From: Flavobacteriaceae bacterium
GTDB lineage: Bacteria > Bacteroidota > Bacteroidia > Flavobacteriales > Weeksellaceae
Length of the DNA stretch: 64,000 bases
Assembly (NCBI GenBank): GCA_018260565.1
Contig: JAGLAZ010000002.1
Coordinates: 1-64,000 of the forward strand
Direction of reading: 5' to 3'
Made by a program: the position numbers and the translations under genes. Shown here in pieces: positions 10,239-44,747 of this stretch. Each line of letters opens with the position of its first letter. Position 1 is the stretch's first letter. A model generated the notes under the pieces. The model was not told where the DNA came from and ran no database searches. It saw only the letters and a list, made by a program, of their open reading frames with translations.

Positions 10239-12687
10239 GATAGTATATGCGTTTTATACGGGAAGATATCCCGGTAAGTATTTCGTAACTAATTGTTTGT
10301 GAAGCATTTGCTAAATTTTGGAGTGATTCTTGATCATCAAAAATAATAACCTTTGAGCCTTCAGGGTATTCATCAGTCCCTAAATAAATCATCATCATGT
10401 CCATACAAATACTTCCTACTACTGGATAGTGCTTTTTACCAATGCGCACTGTGAACTCTCCGAATTTGGCATTCGCCATTCTGTGAATTCCGTCAGCATA
10501 GCCTATGGGTAAGGTAGCAATATTGCAATCTTCTGGAGCCACCCACTTCCTGGAATAGCTTACTCCCTCTCCTTTTCGCACAAAAGTAATTTGGGATATC
10601 ACTGTAGACAGGCTGACCACAGGCATAAGATAGGGTTGATGTCGTGATGTAGAAAGCCCATACATCCCTATGCCTAATCTTGCTAAATCACTTGGGGTTT
10701 CATTAAAAGAAGCTATTCCACCAGTGTTAAGAATATGTCGTTGAGGGGAATATCCCAGGGTTTTCTCAATGATATTAAAACCTGTTTCAAACTTTTTAAT
10801 TTGAAGTTCCGTAAATTCTTTTCCTTCTTCAGAATCTGAGGAACTTAAATGAGACATTATACTTTTGACTTCTATTTTATCTAAATATTGCGTTAAAATT
10901 GATAAAAAAGGTTCTATTTGCTGTTCTGAAAAGCCCAAACGATGCATTCCAGTATCTAATTTTATGTGAATTGGAAATTTGGAAGTACTATTTAAGACTC
11001 CTTCATCTATTAAGTATTGAAACTGCTGTATGGAATGAATTTCCGGTTCTAAGTAAAACTCTTTCATTTTGGTAATCTGAGCACGCTCAGGATTTAAAAC
11101 TAAAATGGGCACTGTAATACCATGTTTCCTCAATTCTACACCTTCATCAATAAAGGCAACTCCGAAATAAGAGATATTTTTATTAGAAAATTGTTTTGCA
11201 ATACCTAAACTTCCCATCCCATAGGCATTGGCCTTTAGCATTAGCATAAGGTTTACATTGGGACTGAGTAAATTTCTAAAGTATGAAACATTGTGCTCTA
11301 AATTCCCAAGATGAATTGCTAAACAAGTTTCATGATTAATGAGACTTAATTTATCTACTATTTTTTCAGTTTTAAAACTTCTTGCTCCTTTAATAATAAT
11401 GTAACTTGATTTTAAAGTGTTTATTTCCGTGCTATCCAGAAAAACATCAACATCTACAAAATTTACTATTGGTTTCACGTGAAACCATTCTTTGTATTCA
11501 TTTATAACTTTTCCTATAAGGATTAATTTTTCTGGTTGTGCTGAATTAAGTAAACTTGCAATATTGCTATATACTTCATTTATATCGTGCTCCTTATAAT
11601 GATCAGTATCTATATCTGTTAATATCAGAATTTTGGTTAAACTAGTTTCGTTAAATTTTTGAAGGCAGATGCGTAAGCTTTCTAGATCGAAATTATAGGT
11701 ATCGTTTAAGATTATATTATCTCTAATACCAGGAATTCTTTCCATCCTCATTTCTACTTCAGAAAGCTGGTTTATACCCTTAATTATTTGGTCGGATTGA
11801 TATCCATACAGATGTTGCATAGCAAATAATGCACAAGCATTCAAGAGTGAAGCATAATCATCATTCCTAATTTCAATGGTACTTTGTCCCTCTGGATAAG
11901 AAATAGTGTAACATTTATCTTTTAATAATTGGATTGAATACGTATTGGTAACGTTAAATCCAAAACTATAGGTTGGAATTTCTAACCTTTGAACATAACT
12001 TTTTACTTCTTCATCATCTCCAAAGTATAAAAAGCGTTTTGCGTTTTTAGCAATTTTTATCTTTTCTTTTATATGACATTCTCGATTTGGAAAGTGTGCT
12101 GAATGTGCACTGCCAATATTCATAAGAACTGCAAGTTCCGGAAATAGCATTTGAGATGGAATATCCATTTCATTCAATCCGCTAATTCCTACTTCAAATA
12201 TTCCTAGTGTATGTTCATATCCAGCTGCTAAAATTGAAAGAGATAATCCTAATGTAGAATTATAACTTTTAGGGCTTTTGCAAATACGATAGGAAACAGA
12301 AAATACTTCAGATGCCCATTCTTTTAAAATAGTTTTTCCATTACTACCTGTTATTGCAATATGTGGCAGCTTTAGTTTTCGCAAATGAGCTTGTGCTGCT
12401 TTATGCAAAAATTTTGAGGAAGACGGTGATTTAATAAATTGTGCATCGAGAAAGATTGAATAATTTTCTGGAAGTATTTCGACAATAAACGAGCGTATTC
12501 CTTTATTATAAGCTTCTTGTATATAAGAATGACCATCTTGATTTTTTGTCTTTATCGCTACAAATGCAGTATTTTTAGTAAAATATATTTTTCTAGTATC
12601 ATACTCAATGAATTGAATTTGTTGCTGATTATTATTAAATAAAATACCTCCACCAAGTTCTGCTAGTTCACTTCCCGAATAATTCAT
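10231..12687 (-). CDS. murF-alr: Bifunctional MurF ligase / alanine racemase
   Basis: Fused peptidoglycan-precursor enzyme. Residues 1 to about 445 are a Mur ligase (UDP-MurNAc-tripeptide:D-Ala-D-Ala ligase), with the ATP-binding motif TGSNGKT and NDTYNFD. From about 450 to the end is a PLP-dependent alanine racemase, with the PLP lysine in LMLKANAYGMG (about 482) and the catalytic tyrosine region GVSYSRKW. Supply of D-Ala and ligation of D-Ala-D-Ala are thus on one chain, an arrangement known in Bacteroidota. At 818 residues it is the expected fused length. It overlaps tdk by 4 nt and the patatin gene by 8 nt. A perfect parS palindrome (11472-11485) lies inside the coding sequence and encodes W-F-H-V-K-P in the Mur half. 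Confidence 0.95.
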   Translation of the reverse strand: MNYSGSELAELGGGILFNNNQQQIQFIEYDTRKIYFTKNTAFVAIKTKNQDGHSYIQEAYNKGIRSFIVEILPENYSIFLDAQFIKSPSSSKFLHKAAQAHLRKLKLPHIAITGSNGKTILKEWASEVFSVSYRICKSPKSYNSTLGLSLSILAAGYEHTLGIFEVGISGLNEMDIPSQMLFPELAVLMNIGSAHSAHFPNRECHIKEKIKIAKNAKRFLYFGDDEEVKSYVQRLEIPTYSFGFNVTNTYSIQLLKDKCYTISYPEGQSTIEIRNDDYASLLNACALFAMQHLYGYQSDQIIKGINQLSEVEMRMERIPGIRDNIILNDTYNFDLESLRICLQKFNETSLTKILILTDIDTDHYKEHDINEVYSNIASLLNSAQPEKLILIGKVINEYKEWFHVKPIVNFVDVDVFLDSTEINTLKSSYIIIKGARSFKTEKIVDKLSLINHETCLAIHLGNLEHNVSYFRNLLSPNVNLMLMLKANAYGMGSLGIAKQFSNKNISYFGVAFIDEGVELRKHGITVPILVLNPERAQITKMKEFYLEPEIHSIQQFQYLIDEGVLNSTSKFPIHIKLDTGMHRLGFSEQQIEPFLSILTQYLDKIEVKSIMSHLSSSDSEEGKEFTELQIKKFETGFNIIEKTLGYSPQRHILNTGGIASFNETPSDLARLGIGMYGLSTSRHQPYLMPVVSLSTVISQITFVRKGEGVSYSRKWVAPEDCNIATLPIGYADGIHRMANAKFGEFTVRIGKKHYPVVGSICMDMMMIYLGTDEYPEGSKVIIFDDQESLQNLANASQTISYEILTGISSRIKRIYYHD
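11472..11485. promoter_or_regulatory. parS: parS site A (ParB-binding centromere)
   Basis: GTTTCACGTGAAAC, a perfect match to the core of the widely conserved parS consensus. The palindrome extends to 18 bp (11470-11487, flanks TG/CA). It lies within the MurF half of murF-alr. Confidence 0.85.
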
Positions 12688-15417: not shown

Positions 15418-17283
15418 ATGGATAATATATTTGATACCATCGTAGTAGGTGGTGGCCACGCAGGCTGCGAAGCCGCTACTGCAAGCGCAAAAATGGGTAG
15501 TAAAACCTTACTTATTACCATGAATATGCAGATGATTGGCCAAATGAGCTGTAATCCTGCAATGGGTGGTATAGCCAAAGGACAAATTGTAAGAGAGATA
15601 GACGCTTTAGGTGGTGGGAGCGGTATCGTTTCAGATAAATCATCTATCCAGTTTAAAATGCTTAATCTTTCCAAAGGTCCGGCAATGTGGTCTCCAAGAA
15701 CTCAGAATGATAGGATGCTATTTGCTCATTACTGGAGAATGCATTTGGAGTCTTTACCAAACTTGGAATTTTATCAAGGGATGGTAGACGATATTTTAGT
15801 TAAAGAAGGAAAACTAAAAGGAGTAAAACTAAATACCGGTGAAATCTTTTATACCAAAAGTGTTGTACTTACCAATGGTACTTTTTTAAATGGTTTAATC
15901 CATATTGGAGAAAAACAATTTGGAGGCGGAAGAATGGGTGAACCAAGAGCCTTTGGTTTAACAGAAAAACTTGTACAACTAGGATTTTCATCCGGAAGAA
16001 TGAAAACTGGAACTCCTCCCCGAATAGATGGGAGAAGCCTGGATTATACTAAAATGGAGGAGCAAAAAGGCGACGAAAATCCTGCCCAATTCTCCTATTT
16101 TCATCCTAATGAATTAGCCGAAAAAACTCAAAAATCTTGTTTTATCAGTTATACTAATCCTATTGTACATGAAATTTTGGCTTCAGGATTTGATAGATCT
16201 CCCATGTTTAATGGAGCTATACAATCCACTGGACCAAGATATTGTCCCAGTATTGAAGATAAGATCAACAGATTTGCAGAAAGGGAAAGACATCAGATTT
16301 TTGCAGAACCAGAAGGTTGGGATACGGTAGAAGTTTATGTAAATGGATTTTCCACAAGCTTACCTGAAGATGTTCAAAAAAAAGCAATTCGATTTATTCC
16401 AGGCTTTGAAAATGCCAAATTTTTCCGTCCAGGTTACGCTATTGAATATGATTATTTCCCACCAACTCAATTAAAAAGAACGCTGGAAACCAAACTTATT
16501 CAAGGGTTGTTTTTTGCTGGACAAATCAATGGAACTACTGGCTATGAAGAAGCGGCAGCCCAAGGTCTTATGGCAGGAATAAATGCGCATCAATATTCAC
16601 ATGATAAGGAGCCCGTTATTCTAGGCAGAAATGAAGCGTATATAGGGGTTTTAATCGATGATTTGGTAACTAAAGGTACGGAGGAGCCTTATAGAATGTT
16701 TACATCTCGTGCAGAATATCGTTTATTATTAAGACAAGATAATGCTGATGAAAGATTATCTCGCATAGGAGCAGAAATTGGATTATTAGAATCCTATAAA
16801 TATGATCTTATTCAAAAGAAATATGAGAATTTAAATCATCTGGTCGCTAATATTCGTAAAGTAAGCATTGGTCCTAAAGATGCAAACCCTGTTATTGTAG
16901 AAAAAAATGGCTCTGAAATAGATCAAAAAGTTAAAATAAGTCAGATTCTTACTAGGCCAGAAATAAAAATTTTAGACTTTAAAGATTTTATAATTAAAGA
17001 ATTAAATTTAGAAAATGAAGATGTAATACCTTGGGAAAATGCTGAAATTAGAATAAAATATGAAGGGTACATTCAGAAAGAAAATGAACAAGTTGAAAAG
17101 TTTAAAAAGATAGAGAAACTTAAATTTCCCGATAATTTTGATTACTCACCAATACAATCTTTAAGTACAGAGGCCAAACAAAAGCTAATAGCTATACAGC
17201 CTGAAACTTTGGGTATGGCAAGCAGAATCTCAGGTGTTTCCCCAGCAGATATCCAAGTACTAATGATATATTTAAACAAATAG
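15418..17283 (+). CDS. mnmG: tRNA uridine-5-carboxymethylaminomethyl modification enzyme MnmG
   Basis: FAD-binding subunit that, with MnmE, installs the carboxymethylaminomethyl group on U34 of tRNAs reading split codon boxes. Visible are the dinucleotide-binding motif [10 protein letters not shown] at the N-terminus, [24 protein letters not shown] and the conserved [12 protein letters not shown]. The family C-terminal domain ends [19 protein letters not shown]. At 621 residues it is full length. Its stop codon TAG (17281-17283) shares its last base with a parS palindrome. MnmG is origin-proximal in many bacteria. Confidence 0.97.
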
Positions 17284-17296
17284 TTTCACGTGAAAC
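17283..17296. promoter_or_regulatory. parS: parS site B, spanning mnmG stop and the next gene's start
   Basis: GTTTCACGTGAAAC, a perfect consensus core. It begins at the last base of the mnmG stop codon and contains the GTG start (17290-17292) of the following methyltransferase gene. Confidence 0.88.
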
Positions 17297-18161: not shown

Positions 18162-19361
18162 TTAATTTTTTGCAGTAATAGCAGCAACTCCCGGCAATTC
18201 CTTACCCTCAAGACTTTCTAACATCGCACCTCCTCCGGTAGACACATAACTTACCTTATCTTCATATCCGAATTGTTTTACAAAACTTACACTATCTCCA
18301 CCTCCCACTAAACTGAATGCTCCTAAAGCTGTTGCTTCTGCTATTGCATCCCCTAATGCCACCGTTCCTTTCGCAAAAGTTGGCATCTCAAATACACCTA
18401 AAGGACCATTCCAAAGTATTGTCTTGCTATCTAAAATTACATCATGAAAAAGTGCTCTGGATTTAGGGCCTACATCCAATCCCATTTTATCAAAAGGTAT
18501 CTTCATTATATCTTCTTCTGAAGTTTCACTGGCATTATTAAATTCACTGGCAGCGATGACATCCACAGGTAGGTGAAGTTTTACATTATATGTTTCACAT
18601 TTACGCATAAGGTCTACAGCTAATTCAATTTTATCCTCTTCCACCATACTTTTTCCTACCATACCACCATTAGCTCGTATAAAAGTAAAAGCCATTCCTC
18701 CTCCAATGATTAAATGATCAATAGCTGGCAAAATATTTTCTATTACAGTAATTTTGGAACTTACTTTAGCTCCTCCTATAACAGCTGTTATAGGATGTTT
18801 ACCTTCTTTCAAAACTTTCTCTATTGCATGTAATTCTTTCTCCATTAATAAACCGAAAAATTTCGTTTTAGAAAACTTCTCAGCTAATACTGCAGTGCTG
18901 GCATGTCTACGATGCGCTGTCCCAAAAGCATCATTAATATAAACATCCCCTAATTTTGCAAGCTGTGTCGCAAAGGAATCGTCTCCGCTTTCCTCACCTG
19001 GATAGAATCTAATATTTTCACAGAGAATAAGACTTTTTTCGGGAAAATCTTCAATCCATTTTCGAGCGTTTACAGAAGTAGGATCTTCTAAAAAATTGAT
19101 AGAATGTCCTAAAATCTCCTCAAGCTGTGGAACTAAAGATTGTAAGGAGAATTCCTCGGATTTTTTACCTTTCGGTCTACCAAAATGGGTAAGAAGAACA
19201 ACTTTTCCTCCTGATTGTAGTACAGTATTTATGCTGTCTTTAGCGGCTTGTATGCGAGTAGCATCAGTAATATTTTTTTTCTCATCCAGCGGGACATTAA
19301 AATCCACTCGCATAAGAGCAATTTTTCCAGAAAAATCAAAATCAGAAAAACTATTTTGCAT
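18162..19361 (-). CDS. pgk: Phosphoglycerate kinase
   Basis: Glycolytic enzyme transferring phosphate between 1,3-bisphosphoglycerate and ADP. Signature segments: KIALMRVDFNVPLDE at the start, VVLLTHFGRPKG, the substrate-binding NDAFGTAHRRHAS, GGAKVSSKITV and the nucleotide-binding GGGDSVSFV near the end. From the ATG at 19361 the protein is 399 residues, the usual size. The longer in-frame start at 19409 is rejected because the extra residues are hydrophobic and not family-like, and a perfect -7 box (19379-19386) falls inside them. Transcription runs away from the candidate origin region. Confidence 0.97.
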   Translation of the reverse strand: MQNSFSDFDFSGKIALMRVDFNVPLDEKKNITDATRIQAAKDSINTVLQSGGKVVLLTHFGRPKGKKSEEFSLQSLVPQLEEILGHSINFLEDPTSVNARKWIEDFPEKSLILCENIRFYPGEESGDDSFATQLAKLGDVYINDAFGTAHRRHASTAVLAEKFSKTKFFGLLMEKELHAIEKVLKEGKHPITAVIGGAKVSSKITVIENILPAIDHLIIGGGMAFTFIRANGGMVGKSMVEEDKIELAVDLMRKCETYNVKLHLPVDVIAASEFNNASETSEEDIMKIPFDKMGLDVGPKSRALFHDVILDSKTILWNGPLGVFEMPTFAKGTVALGDAIAEATALGAFSLVGGGDSVSFVKQFGYEDKVSYVSTGGGAMLESLEGKELPGVAAITAKN

Positions 19362-19378
19362 ATGTAATTTGTTTGCCA

Positions 19379-19386
19379 CAAAGATA
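19379..19386 (-). promoter_or_regulatory. Candidate -7 promoter box for pgk
   Basis: TATCTTTG on the minus strand matches TAnnTTTG, 17 bp before the preferred pgk ATG. A TTTG on the same strand at 19400-19403 is closer than the usual -33 spacing. Confidence 0.55.
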
Positions 19387-19655
19387 CACAGCCAAAATTC
19401 AAAATACATAAAAGCTTTTCCCCCACCCCATCTTTACATCTTCAAGTTTATTTTAAATAATAGTATACTTAAATAATTAAAGATAATGCTGTATGATAAT
19501 GGATAAGTCGCAATAGTGGAAAACAATATTTTTCCCCGTTTTTGAGAATATATTTGTTTTTATTGTTAATCGATTTTAATTGAGATTCAAGTATTTACTA
19601 TGTTTATCCACTTATTAACATAACCGTAAATCATCTAGTAAATTTTCAAAAATTA

Positions 19656-19664
19656 TGTGGATAA
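19656..19664 (-). promoter_or_regulatory. DnaA box (perfect)
   Basis: TGTGGATAA on the plus strand is TTATCCACA on the minus strand, the strict DnaA-box consensus. Confidence 0.7.
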
Positions 19665-19814
19665 ACCTAAAATAAGTCCCAAGAAAAAATAGGCCAAATG
19701 GTGAAACTTTTTCGGAGATGCCACTCCATACGGAATTTATTGTAATAAGATTAACACCAGTTACATTTATTTATCCCCATCATTTTAAAGACTTCTTTTT
19801 ACTAAATCCTTGAC

Positions 19815-19823
19815 TTATCCACA
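19815..19823 (+). promoter_or_regulatory. DnaA box (perfect)
   Basis: TTATCCACA, the strict DnaA-box consensus, 150 bp from the other perfect box and in the opposite orientation. Confidence 0.7.
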
Positions 19824-20351
19824 TTCTATATAACATAATATTTAATACTAAAAAATTATGTTCTTTAAAGGTAAAATTTAAATGATAAGGAGACAATCAT
19901 AAGTGATAAATTTTCCAGAATCAATATTTTAAGCTGTAATTAAATTTAATTAATGCCCAACTGGACCTTTGGTATAAAAGAATTTTATTTAAATACTCGT
20001 TGTAAATTTTTGTTTTTAATGAGAGAAATATTAAAGTTTTTTAATTGAAGATGGAAAAATATTGTATGCTTATCCTTATTTATTTAAATCAATTACATAC
20101 CAGTAATAAAAGTGAGAATTAAATTTCTTGCTAATAAAGTTTAGTATTGAATAGAAAAATTCTCTATAATATAATTTACTGCTAAATTCTACTAATTTTT
20201 ATTAGACACTACTCCATATAATATATAAGGATTTATAAAAATCGAAAACTTTGATTTGTTTATTAACTGTTTGGTAACCAATAAGCTAAAATGATATTTA
20301 ATATTAGCTAGAAATTCAAAATTTGCTACCCTTACTCAAAATTATTTAAAG

Positions 20352-20359
20352 TAACTTTG
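20352..20359 (+). promoter_or_regulatory. Candidate -7 promoter box for rpiB
   Basis: TAACTTTG matches TAnnTTTG, 13 bp before the rpiB ATG. A TTTG at 20322-20325 lies 26 bp upstream of it, slightly farther than usual. Confidence 0.5.
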
Positions 20360-20372
20360 TGAAAAAGCCAAT

Positions 20373-20819
20373 ATGTTGCATATCGCAATTGCAGGAGACC
20401 ATGCATCTCCCGCGCTTAAAAAAAAAATTATAGAAACCTTTTCCAGTACATACCATTTTAAAGATTTTGGTACATGCACAGAAGAATCTGTAGATTATCC
20501 AGATTTTGCACATCCTGCAGCCAAAGAGGTTTCAGAAGGAACATGCGATTTTGGGATTCTAATCTGCGGAAGTGGAAATGGTGTCCAAATGACGGCCAAT
20601 AAATACCAAAAAATACGCTGCGCACTGGCATGGACAGTAGAGGTAGCAGCTCTGGCAAGACAACATAATGACGCCAATATGCTGGCACTACCTGCACGCT
20701 TCATTTCAGAAGAGCTAGCCTTAGAAATGGTTAAAACTTTCCTAGCCACAAGCTTTGAAGGTGGAAGACACCAGCGAAGGGTAGATAAAATTGCCATTCC
20801 AAAAGAATACAAAGAATGA
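20373..20819 (+). CDS. rpiB: Ribose-5-phosphate isomerase B
   Basis: Interconverts ribose-5-phosphate and ribulose-5-phosphate in the pentose phosphate pathway. RpiB/LacA fold: the start MLHIAIAGDHASPALKK contains the conserved GDHA, then SVDYPDFAHPAA, and the active-site loop GILICGSGNGVQMTANK with the catalytic cysteine. Late arginine/histidine phosphate ligands appear in ARQHNDAN and GGRHQRRVDKI. At 148 residues the length is normal. It is the first gene right of the candidate origin and overlaps rnr by 4 nt. Confidence 0.95.
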   Translation: MLHIAIAGDHASPALKKKIIETFSSTYHFKDFGTCTEESVDYPDFAHPAAKEVSEGTCDFGILICGSGNGVQMTANKYQKIRCALAWTVEVAALARQHNDANMLALPARFISEELALEMVKTFLATSFEGGRHQRRVDKIAIPKEYKE

Positions 20820-22981
20820 ACAAAAAACCAAAATTTTTCAGTGCGAAAAAGGATACCAAATTGAAGGAAGTAGGTAAACTCATTCTGGATTTTCTTAATA
20901 AAAACCCTACAAAAATATACAACTATAAACAGATTGCAAATGCTGTAGAGTATAAGAATCCCCGTGAACGGGAATTAATTATTCAGGCTCTGCACCAGCT
21001 ACTGGCAGAGGAAAAAATTCAAGAAACCGAAAAGGGTAAATATATCGTAAACCTAAAAATTAAGGGAACTGTTACAGGTACTATAGACTTCAACCAAGCG
21101 GGTAATGCCTATGTAAAAGTTCCTGGATTAGATCAAGATATTTTTATTCACGCTAAAAATGTAAAAAATGCATTTCAAGGGGATAAAGTACTGATTCTTA
21201 CCTACCATTTTAAAGGGAAACAGATGGAAGGTTCCGTAGTAGAGGTCATAGAACGACATAAGGAAGAATTCGTAGGTACCTTTGAATATATAGAACATAA
21301 GGACTTCGGTTTTGTAGTTTTCGATAAAAAAACTCTTCATACTGATATGTTTATCCCCAAAAATGCAATCAACGGTGCTTATGATGGGGATAAAGTAGTA
21401 GCAAAATTAATTGATTGGCCTGCAAATTCTAAGAATCCAGTGGGTGAAATAACTCGGGTTTTAGGTGCTCCTGGAGAGCATGAGACAGAAATTCACTCTA
21501 TCCTTGCAGATTATGACCTACCCTATGAGTTCCCACCAGAAGTAGAAGAGGCAGCCGCTGCCATTTCAGAAGAAATTACTGCAGATGAATTAGAAAAAAG
21601 GTGGGATATGCGCGGCATTACTACCTTTACTATAGATCCTAAAGATGCCAAAGACTTTGATGATGCACTCTCAGTTCGTCGCCTAGAAAATGGGCTATGG
21701 GAAATAGGAGTACATATAGCAGATGTTGCCCATTTTGTGCATCCAGATACCTTACTAGATGAAGAGGCCTACGCACGAGCAACTTCTGTGTATTTGGTGG
21801 ATCGTGTGGTCCCTATGCTTCCTGAAAAACTCTCAAACGGTGTGTGTAGTCTTAGGCCCAATGAGGATAAATATACCTTCTCCGCCGTCTTTGAAATTGA
21901 TGATGATGCTAATATTAAGAAATCTTGGTTTGGCCGGACTGTAACGCATTCGGATAGGCGATTCACCTATGAAGAAGCTCAAGAAAGAATAGAGACAGGA
22001 ACTGGAGATTTTGCCGAAGAAATTATGAGTCTCAATATTTTGGCTAAAAAATTCAGGGAAAGACGCATAGCCAATGGCGCTATTACTTTTGAAAGAAGTG
22101 AGGTTCGTTTTAATTTAGATGAAAAAAATAATCCCATAGGTGTTTACTTTAAAATTCCAAAAGATTCTAATAACTTAATTGAAGAATTCATGCTCTTGGC
22201 AAACAAAGCCGTAGCAGAGCGTGTGAGTCTCAATAGAAATAACGAACCTACGGGTAGCACCTTCATCTATAGAATACATGATGATCCGGATCCTGCAAAA
22301 CTTCAGGCTCTCAAGGAGTTTGTGGGAACCTTTGGATATGAAATGAATATTTCTAATGCCCGACACACAGCCCAATCCATGAATAAGCTATTAAAGGAGG
22401 TTAGAAATAAAGCAGAAGGAAATATGATAGAAACTCTTGCTATGAGAAGTATGTCGAAGGCTATCTATTCCACTAATCCTATCGGACATTACGGGCTGGG
22501 ATTTGAATATTATTCACACTTTACCTCACCCATCCGAAGGTACCCAGATGTTTTAGCACACCGCCTTCTTCAGCACTATTTATTGGGTGGCAGATCGCCG
22601 ATGCGAGATGATTATGAGGAAATGTGTCAGCATTGTAGCCAGCGTGAAAAAATGGCTGCAGATGCAGAACGGGACAGTATAAAATATATGCAGGTGAAAT
22701 TTATGCAGGATAAAGTAGGCCAAGAATTCCGAGGTATTATTAGTGGCGTTGCCGAATTCGGATTTTGGGTCCAAATTCCAGAAAACGGAGCTGAAGGTCT
22801 AATAAAAACTCGTGACCTCATGGACGATAGCTATTATTATGATGCTAAATCCCATATGGTGGTAGGTAAAAGAACAGGCAATACTTTTCGCCTTGGTGAT
22901 GAGGTAAGTATTATGGTAATGAAAGCCAACCTTATCCAGAAACAATTAGATTTTAAAATTATACACCCATCTGAGGAATAA
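20816..22981 (+). CDS. rnr: Ribonuclease R
   Basis: Processive 3'-5' exoribonuclease able to degrade structured RNA. The N-terminal 70 residues form a winged helix (YKQIANAVEY). Cold-shock/OB domains follow (TGTIDFNQAGNAYVKV; VGTFEYIEHKDFGFVV). The RNB catalytic domain has the metal-binding aspartates in DPKDAKDFDDALSV and later HFTSPIRRYPDVLAHRLL. A C-terminal S1 domain (FRGIISGVAEFGFWVQI) completes the enzyme. At 721 residues it is typical for Bacteroidota. It is translationally coupled to rpiB through a 4-nt overlap. Confidence 0.96.
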   Translation: MNKKPKFFSAKKDTKLKEVGKLILDFLNKNPTKIYNYKQIANAVEYKNPRERELIIQALHQLLAEEKIQETEKGKYIVNLKIKGTVTGTIDFNQAGNAYVKVPGLDQDIFIHAKNVKNAFQGDKVLILTYHFKGKQMEGSVVEVIERHKEEFVGTFEYIEHKDFGFVVFDKKTLHTDMFIPKNAINGAYDGDKVVAKLIDWPANSKNPVGEITRVLGAPGEHETEIHSILADYDLPYEFPPEVEEAAAAISEEITADELEKRWDMRGITTFTIDPKDAKDFDDALSVRRLENGLWEIGVHIADVAHFVHPDTLLDEEAYARATSVYLVDRVVPMLPEKLSNGVCSLRPNEDKYTFSAVFEIDDDANIKKSWFGRTVTHSDRRFTYEEAQERIETGTGDFAEEIMSLNILAKKFRERRIANGAITFERSEVRFNLDEKNNPIGVYFKIPKDSNNLIEEFMLLANKAVAERVSLNRNNEPTGSTFIYRIHDDPDPAKLQALKEFVGTFGYEMNISNARHTAQSMNKLLKEVRNKAEGNMIETLAMRSMSKAIYSTNPIGHYGLGFEYYSHFTSPIRRYPDVLAHRLLQHYLLGGRSPMRDDYEEMCQHCSQREKMAADAERDSIKYMQVKFMQDKVGQEFRGIISGVAEFGFWVQIPENGAEGLIKTRDLMDDSYYYDAKSHMVVGKRTGNTFRLGDEVSIMVMKANLIQKQLDFKIIHPSEE

Positions 22982-44733: not shown

Positions 44734-44747
44734 GTTCCACGTGAAAC
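44734..44747. promoter_or_regulatory. parS: parS-like site C (one mismatch)
   Basis: GTTCCACGTGAAAC differs from the parS core by one base in the left arm (T to C). It lies in the divergent spacer between the DUF3078 and exonuclease genes. Confidence 0.7.

What the first reader, a model, noticed from the sequence alone, without database searches (positions are those of the whole stretch)
19404..20351. Candidate replication origin without dnaA beside it
This is the longest gene-free stretch in the window. It has two perfect DnaA boxes in opposite orientation (19656-19664, 19815-19823) and two single-mismatch boxes (19604-19612, 19771-19779) clustered in 220 bp. An extremely AT-rich tract lies to its right, and parS-like sites on both sides. 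DnaA-box clusters next to an AT-rich unwinding element define bacterial origins. Here the flanking genes are pgk and rpiB, so a search centred on dnaA would miss it.
Basis: partly seen in the sequence, partly recalled or inferred. Interest (0 to 1): 0.72.

Follow-up and report, generated by a model that had tools for sequence, protein, structure and literature searches.

The report
Chromosome replication origin away from dnaA
This 1-kb gap between two sugar-metabolism genes is very probably where the chromosome of this Flavobacteriales bacterium starts copying itself; finding it far from the usual marker gene dnaA is normal for this phylum, so it is a solid but ordinary finding.

Summary
The pgk-rpiB gap (about 19362-20372) has two perfect DnaA boxes and two one-mismatch boxes. 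They lie beside the most AT-rich 400 bp of the 188-kb contig, and parS sites lie on both sides. The perfect boxes are the only pair closer than 2.6 kb in the 1.87-Mb draft genome. All three of its exact parS sites are in the window, and dnaA is on another contig with no box cluster. Comparative evidence makes a chromosomal oriC very likely. In 25 pgk-rpiB gaps (24 relatives plus own), DnaA boxes are nine times over expectation, and promoters hug the gap's edges. The order parS-mnmG-parS-MTase-pgk-gap-rpiB-rnr is conserved. rpiB lies within 50 kb of parS in 30 of 31 genomes; dnaA is 0.5-1.4 Mb from parS. Sampled GC skew switches in the stretch holding this gap in one relative, 50-250 kb off in a second and 0.2-0.5 Mb off in a third; never at dnaA. 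Published work already says oriC is commonly far from dnaA in Bacteroidetes. This is a new member of a known kind, not demonstrated in cells.

The parts
19387..20351 (.). candidate oriC: gene-free stretch between the pgk and rpiB promoters
19604..19612 (+). DnaA box, 1 mismatch (TTATCCACT)
19656..19664 (-). perfect DnaA box TTATCCACA
19771..19779 (+). DnaA box, 1 mismatch (TTATCCCCA)
19815..19823 (+). perfect DnaA box TTATCCACA
19824..20351 (.). AT-rich tract, inferred DNA unwinding element; overlaps the most AT-rich 400-bp windows of the 188-kb contig
   Evidence: 79.5% AT; unwinding role inferred
19379..19386 (-). TATCTTTG, Bacteroidota-type -7 promoter element (TAnnTTTG) of pgk, at the left edge
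20352..20359 (+). TAACTTTG, Bacteroidota-type -7 promoter element (TAnnTTTG) of rpiB, at the right edge
11472..11485 (.). parS GTTTCACGTGAAAC
17283..17296 (.). parS GTTTCACGTGAAAC at the 3' end of mnmG
44734..44747 (.). parS GTTCCACGTGAAAC
15418..17283 (+). mnmG (gidA), conserved origin-side gene
18162..19361 (-). pgk, left flank
20373..20819 (+). rpiB, right flank
20816..22981 (+). rnr (RNase R), conserved origin-side gene

Best explanation
The pgk-rpiB gap is the chromosomal replication origin (oriC). DnaA, made from a gene elsewhere on the chromosome, binds the two perfect boxes (19656 and 19815) and the two weaker ones (19604, 19771). It oligomerises towards the AT-rich tract at about 19824-20351 and opens it for helicase loading. 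Replication then runs both ways, and ParB at the nearby parS sites segregates the new origins. Shown here by sequence: the box cluster and its uniqueness, the AT tract, parS proximity, family-wide conservation, promoters confined to the edges, and a skew switch at or near the gap in two of three sampled relatives. Inferred: DnaA binding, which tract unwinds, helicase loading and bidirectional forks.
For: Only close pair of exact boxes in the genome; no box cluster at dnaA, which lies on contig C16; 0 of 1000 simulations. In 25 pgk-rpiB gaps (24 relatives plus own): 75 boxes in 16,652 bp against 8.0 +/- 3.3 expected, and TTATCCACA found blind in 15 gaps against 0.38 expected. Conserved order parS-mnmG-parS-MTase-pgk-gap-rpiB-rnr in 11 of 14 relatives examined. 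TAnnTTTG promoter elements within 110 nt of pgk in 24 of 25 and of rpiB in 20 of 25, against about 2.7 expected. rpiB within 50 kb of parS in 30 of 31 genomes, dnaA 0.54-1.39 Mb from parS in all 10 measurable. GC-skew fit in G031 puts the origin in the stretch with this gap, better than any of 500 permutations; local skew minimum within about 1 kb of the gap in G031 and inside it in G026. The genome encodes DnaA and a ParB-family protein.
Against: No replication data. The draft assembly prevents a whole-chromosome skew for this organism; the contig's own minimum is at 13.85 kb, 6 kb to the left. In G008 the sampled skew switch is 0.2-0.5 Mb from the gap, which there holds only two one-mismatch boxes; in G026 the best fits are 50-250 kb off. 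Canonical DnaA-trios are not enriched beside the boxes. The gap does not align base for base with those of relatives.
Confidence: 0.9

Rival explanations
1. A long divergent promoter region for pgk and rpiB in which DnaA boxes regulate those genes.
For: The two genes are divergent and DnaA can act as a transcription factor (general knowledge).
Against: Promoter elements sit within 110 nt of the genes in most relatives, leaving the middle of the gap with the boxes unexplained. parS, mnmG synteny and skew also point to the origin. In Flavobacteriaceae loci the neighbour changes to rnr, yet boxes upstream of rpiB stay enriched (1/808 against 1/2796 bp).
Confidence: 0.04
2. A DnaA-titration site (datA-like) close to, but not itself, the origin.
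For: The box cluster and the origin-proximal position would look alike.
Against: No other exact-box cluster exists in the genome or at dnaA. The AT-rich flank and conservation across genera fit an origin. In G031 and G026 the local skew minimum is at or within about 1 kb of the gap.
Confidence: 0.05
3. Chance cluster of boxes in AT-rich noncoding DNA, with the true origin elsewhere.
For: Skew offsets in G008 and G026. Exact boxes are not over-represented genome-wide.
Against: 0 of 1000 simulations and ninefold enrichment in 25 gaps.
Confidence: 0.01

Closest known systems
Bacteroidetes oriC regions distant from dnaA (DoriC / Ori-Finder; stated for the phylum in PMC4755523, Prevotella intermedia)
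   Same: Multiple DnaA boxes at the GC-skew switch, dnaA far away.
   Different: Flanking genes there are not given in the passages read; here they are pgk and rpiB with mnmG and parS close by.
Elizabethkingia meningoseptica G4076 predicted oriC (PMC8994065)
   Same: Predicted oriC of 649 bp with three boxes and AT-rich elements, about 1.9 Mb from dnaA.
   Different: Flanking genes not named in the passages read, so identity of the locus was not checked.
Mariniflexile litorale predicted oriC next to mnmG (PMC11278836)
   Same: Ori-Finder and GC skew place oriC near mnmG and not at dnaA.
   Different: Text and figure legend of that paper disagree on which end is oriC; pgk/rpiB not mentioned in the passages read.
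Escherichia coli oriC (beside mnmG/gidA, not dnaA)
   Same: From general knowledge: box cluster plus AT-rich unwinding element, near gidA, away from dnaA.
   Different: No chromosomal parS/ParB system in E. coli (general knowledge); box number and order differ.

Membership tests
bacterial chromosomal oriC | cluster of DnaA boxes above chance | tested here: met
bacterial chromosomal oriC | adjacent AT-rich tract that can serve as unwinding element | tested here: met
   most AT-rich 400 bp of the contig lies beside the boxes; unwinding itself not tested
bacterial chromosomal oriC | located at the GC-skew switch of the chromosome | tested here: inconclusive
   Own genome is a draft; window minimum fits, contig minimum is 6 kb left. 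In the sampled stretch in relative G031, close in G026, 0.2-0.5 Mb off in G008
bacterial chromosomal oriC | parS sites nearby | tested here: met
   all three exact parS of the genome lie about 8 and 2 kb left and 25 kb right; 30 of 31 genomes
bacterial chromosomal oriC | conserved in position among relatives | tested here: met
bacterial chromosomal oriC | replication starts there in cells | not testable with these tools
   needs read-depth or plasmid assays
BUS (DnaA box plus DnaA-trio, PMC8287927) | at least three NAN trios within 16 bp of a box, more often than chance | tested here: not met
   47% of boxes against 51% of random positions in the same gaps; the AT-rich background makes the loose rule uninformative
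dnaA-dnaN type origin | boxes beside dnaA | tested here: not met
   dnaA on C16 with no cluster

The most novel reading that the evidence does not exclude
Origins of this family share an unwinding module that is not the canonical DnaA-trio: on the pgk side many relatives carry a DnaA box followed by an ACAACAACA-type trinucleotide run and then a T-rich tract (CTACAACAA in 8 gaps, 0.15 expected). This would be a lineage-specific replacement for the trio. The window's own gap lacks it.
Probability: 0.15. Interest if true: 0.5.

Novelty: new member of a known kind. Interest (0 to 1): 0.27.

Why it matters
It gives a gene-context rule for finding origins in Flavobacteriales drafts: look upstream of rpiB near the mnmG/parS pair, not at dnaA. 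Several single-contig relatives have dnaA at base 1, about 1.0-1.1 Mb from the likely origin, which would mislead replichore and peak-to-trough growth estimates that assume the origin is at dnaA. A defined oriC would also allow replicating test plasmids in laboratory strains of this group.

Tried and rejected
dnaA-adjacent origin: no box cluster on C16. Rival box clusters with three exact boxes in G031, G026 and G004 share the same 234/20-bp spacing, and in the two that were read the sequence is near-identical with GTGAGTGCAATTCCGAA repeats; judged a mobile element, not an origin. Canonical DnaA-trio: not above background. The 62.5-kb 'gap' is an ORF running off the window. A literature search for oriC with rpiB and DnaA boxes gave only one paper with all three terms, on Acinetobacter.

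Full report
What is there. The gap between pgk (-) and rpiB (+) runs from about 19362 to 20372 (gene identities by Pfam). It holds two perfect DnaA boxes, at 19656 (-) and 19815 (+), and two one-mismatch boxes, at 19604 and 19771. The cluster is the densest in the 188-kb contig, and none of 1000 order-2 Markov simulations of the gap reaches it. In the whole 1.87-Mb, 46-contig genome there are 26 exact TTATCCACA sites, about the number in the reversed control, so the site itself is not enriched. The pair here is the only one closer than 2.6 kb. The tract to the right includes the most AT-rich 400-bp windows of the contig at 79.5% AT. No RNA gene lies in the gap.

parS. The pattern GTTNCACGTGNAAC has three exact sites in the genome, all in the window: 11472, 17283 and 44734. 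A ParB-family gene is present. In most family members there are exactly two sites, typically about 1.9 kb apart; in the loci examined they flank mnmG. Over Flavobacteriales, rpiB is within 50 kb of parS in 30 of 31 genomes where both lie on one contig (median 6.5 kb). dnaA is 0.54-1.39 Mb from parS in all ten genomes where that was measured (from the positions).

Relatives. The window belongs to a Flavobacteriales family, probably Weeksellaceae by the named loci with the same gene order (Kaistella, Vaginella). Eleven of 14 relatives examined keep mnmG-MTase-pgk(-)-gap-rpiB-rnr, all eleven with a parS site at each end of mnmG. The window's genome has the site 3' of mnmG but not the 5' one. In 25 distinct pgk-rpiB gaps, own included, there are 75 boxes in 16,652 bp where 8.0 +/- 3.3 are expected, and an unguided k-mer search returns TTATCCACA in 15 gaps against 0.38 expected. 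Bacteroidota-type TAnnTTTG promoter elements (motif from general knowledge) lie within 110 nt of pgk in 24 gaps and of rpiB in 20, against about 2.7 expected, so the middle of the gap is probably not needed as promoter. In Flavobacteriaceae loci rnr often replaces pgk as the divergent neighbour, yet boxes remain enriched upstream of rpiB (1 per 808 bp against 1 per 2796 bp).

Skew. For single-contig relatives I sampled 20-kb stretches and fitted one origin and one terminus. G031: the origin falls between 2,189,323 and 2,270,409; the gap is at about 2.2034 Mb. G026: best fits lie between 1.45 and 1.66 Mb; the gap is at 1.703 Mb, with a local minimum in the gap. G008: best fits lie between 2.36 and 2.66 Mb; the gap is at 2.867 Mb, a real disagreement that a rearrangement or an origin shift might explain. 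In no case does the switch fall at dnaA. In each case 0 of 500 permutations fit as well. For the window's own contig, the skew is flat and low from 13.85 to about 20 kb and then rises for 150 kb; only 20 kb are available on the left.

How it most likely works. By analogy with studied bacterial origins, DnaA binds the boxes, oligomerises towards the AT-rich tract and opens it for the replicative helicase; two forks leave in opposite directions, and ParB bound at parS moves the new origins apart. The sequence evidence supports the position and the parts; every biochemical step is inferred.

What is known. A published analysis states that in Bacteroidetes oriC is commonly far from dnaA (PMC4755523). 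Elizabethkingia has a predicted oriC about 1.9 Mb from dnaA (PMC8994065), and Mariniflexile one near mnmG (PMC11278836, whose legend disagrees with its text). Gut bacteria studied by Hi-C show the origin at parS clusters and not always at dnaA (PMC10197239). The window's locus is therefore a new member of a known kind.

Open points. The loose DnaA-trio rule of PMC8287927 does not separate boxes from background here. Many relatives carry a box followed by an ACAACAACA-type run on the pgk side, but the window's gap does not. Function in cells is untested.

Noticed in passing
G031:C1:1873595, G026:C1:2285386, G004:C1:261502: Three exact DnaA boxes with the same 234/20-bp spacing; near-identical sequence in G031 and G026 with GTGAGTGCAATTCCGAA repeats: probably the end of a mobile element, a decoy for origin finders.
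   Followed up: partly
pgk-rpiB gaps of relatives, e.g. L089, L093, L105, L110: Conserved element A-tract - TGTTGTTGTAG - spacer - TTGTGGA(T/A)AA-like box on the pgk side; function unknown, absent from the window's gap.
   Followed up: partly
window 15418-17296: mnmG is flanked by a parS on each side in most relatives examined; here only the 3' site is next to mnmG, with extra sites at 11472 and 44734.
   Followed up: partly
G031, G026, G008, G020: Single-contig relatives start at dnaA, about 1.0-1.1 Mb from parS and the likely origin.
   Followed up: yes
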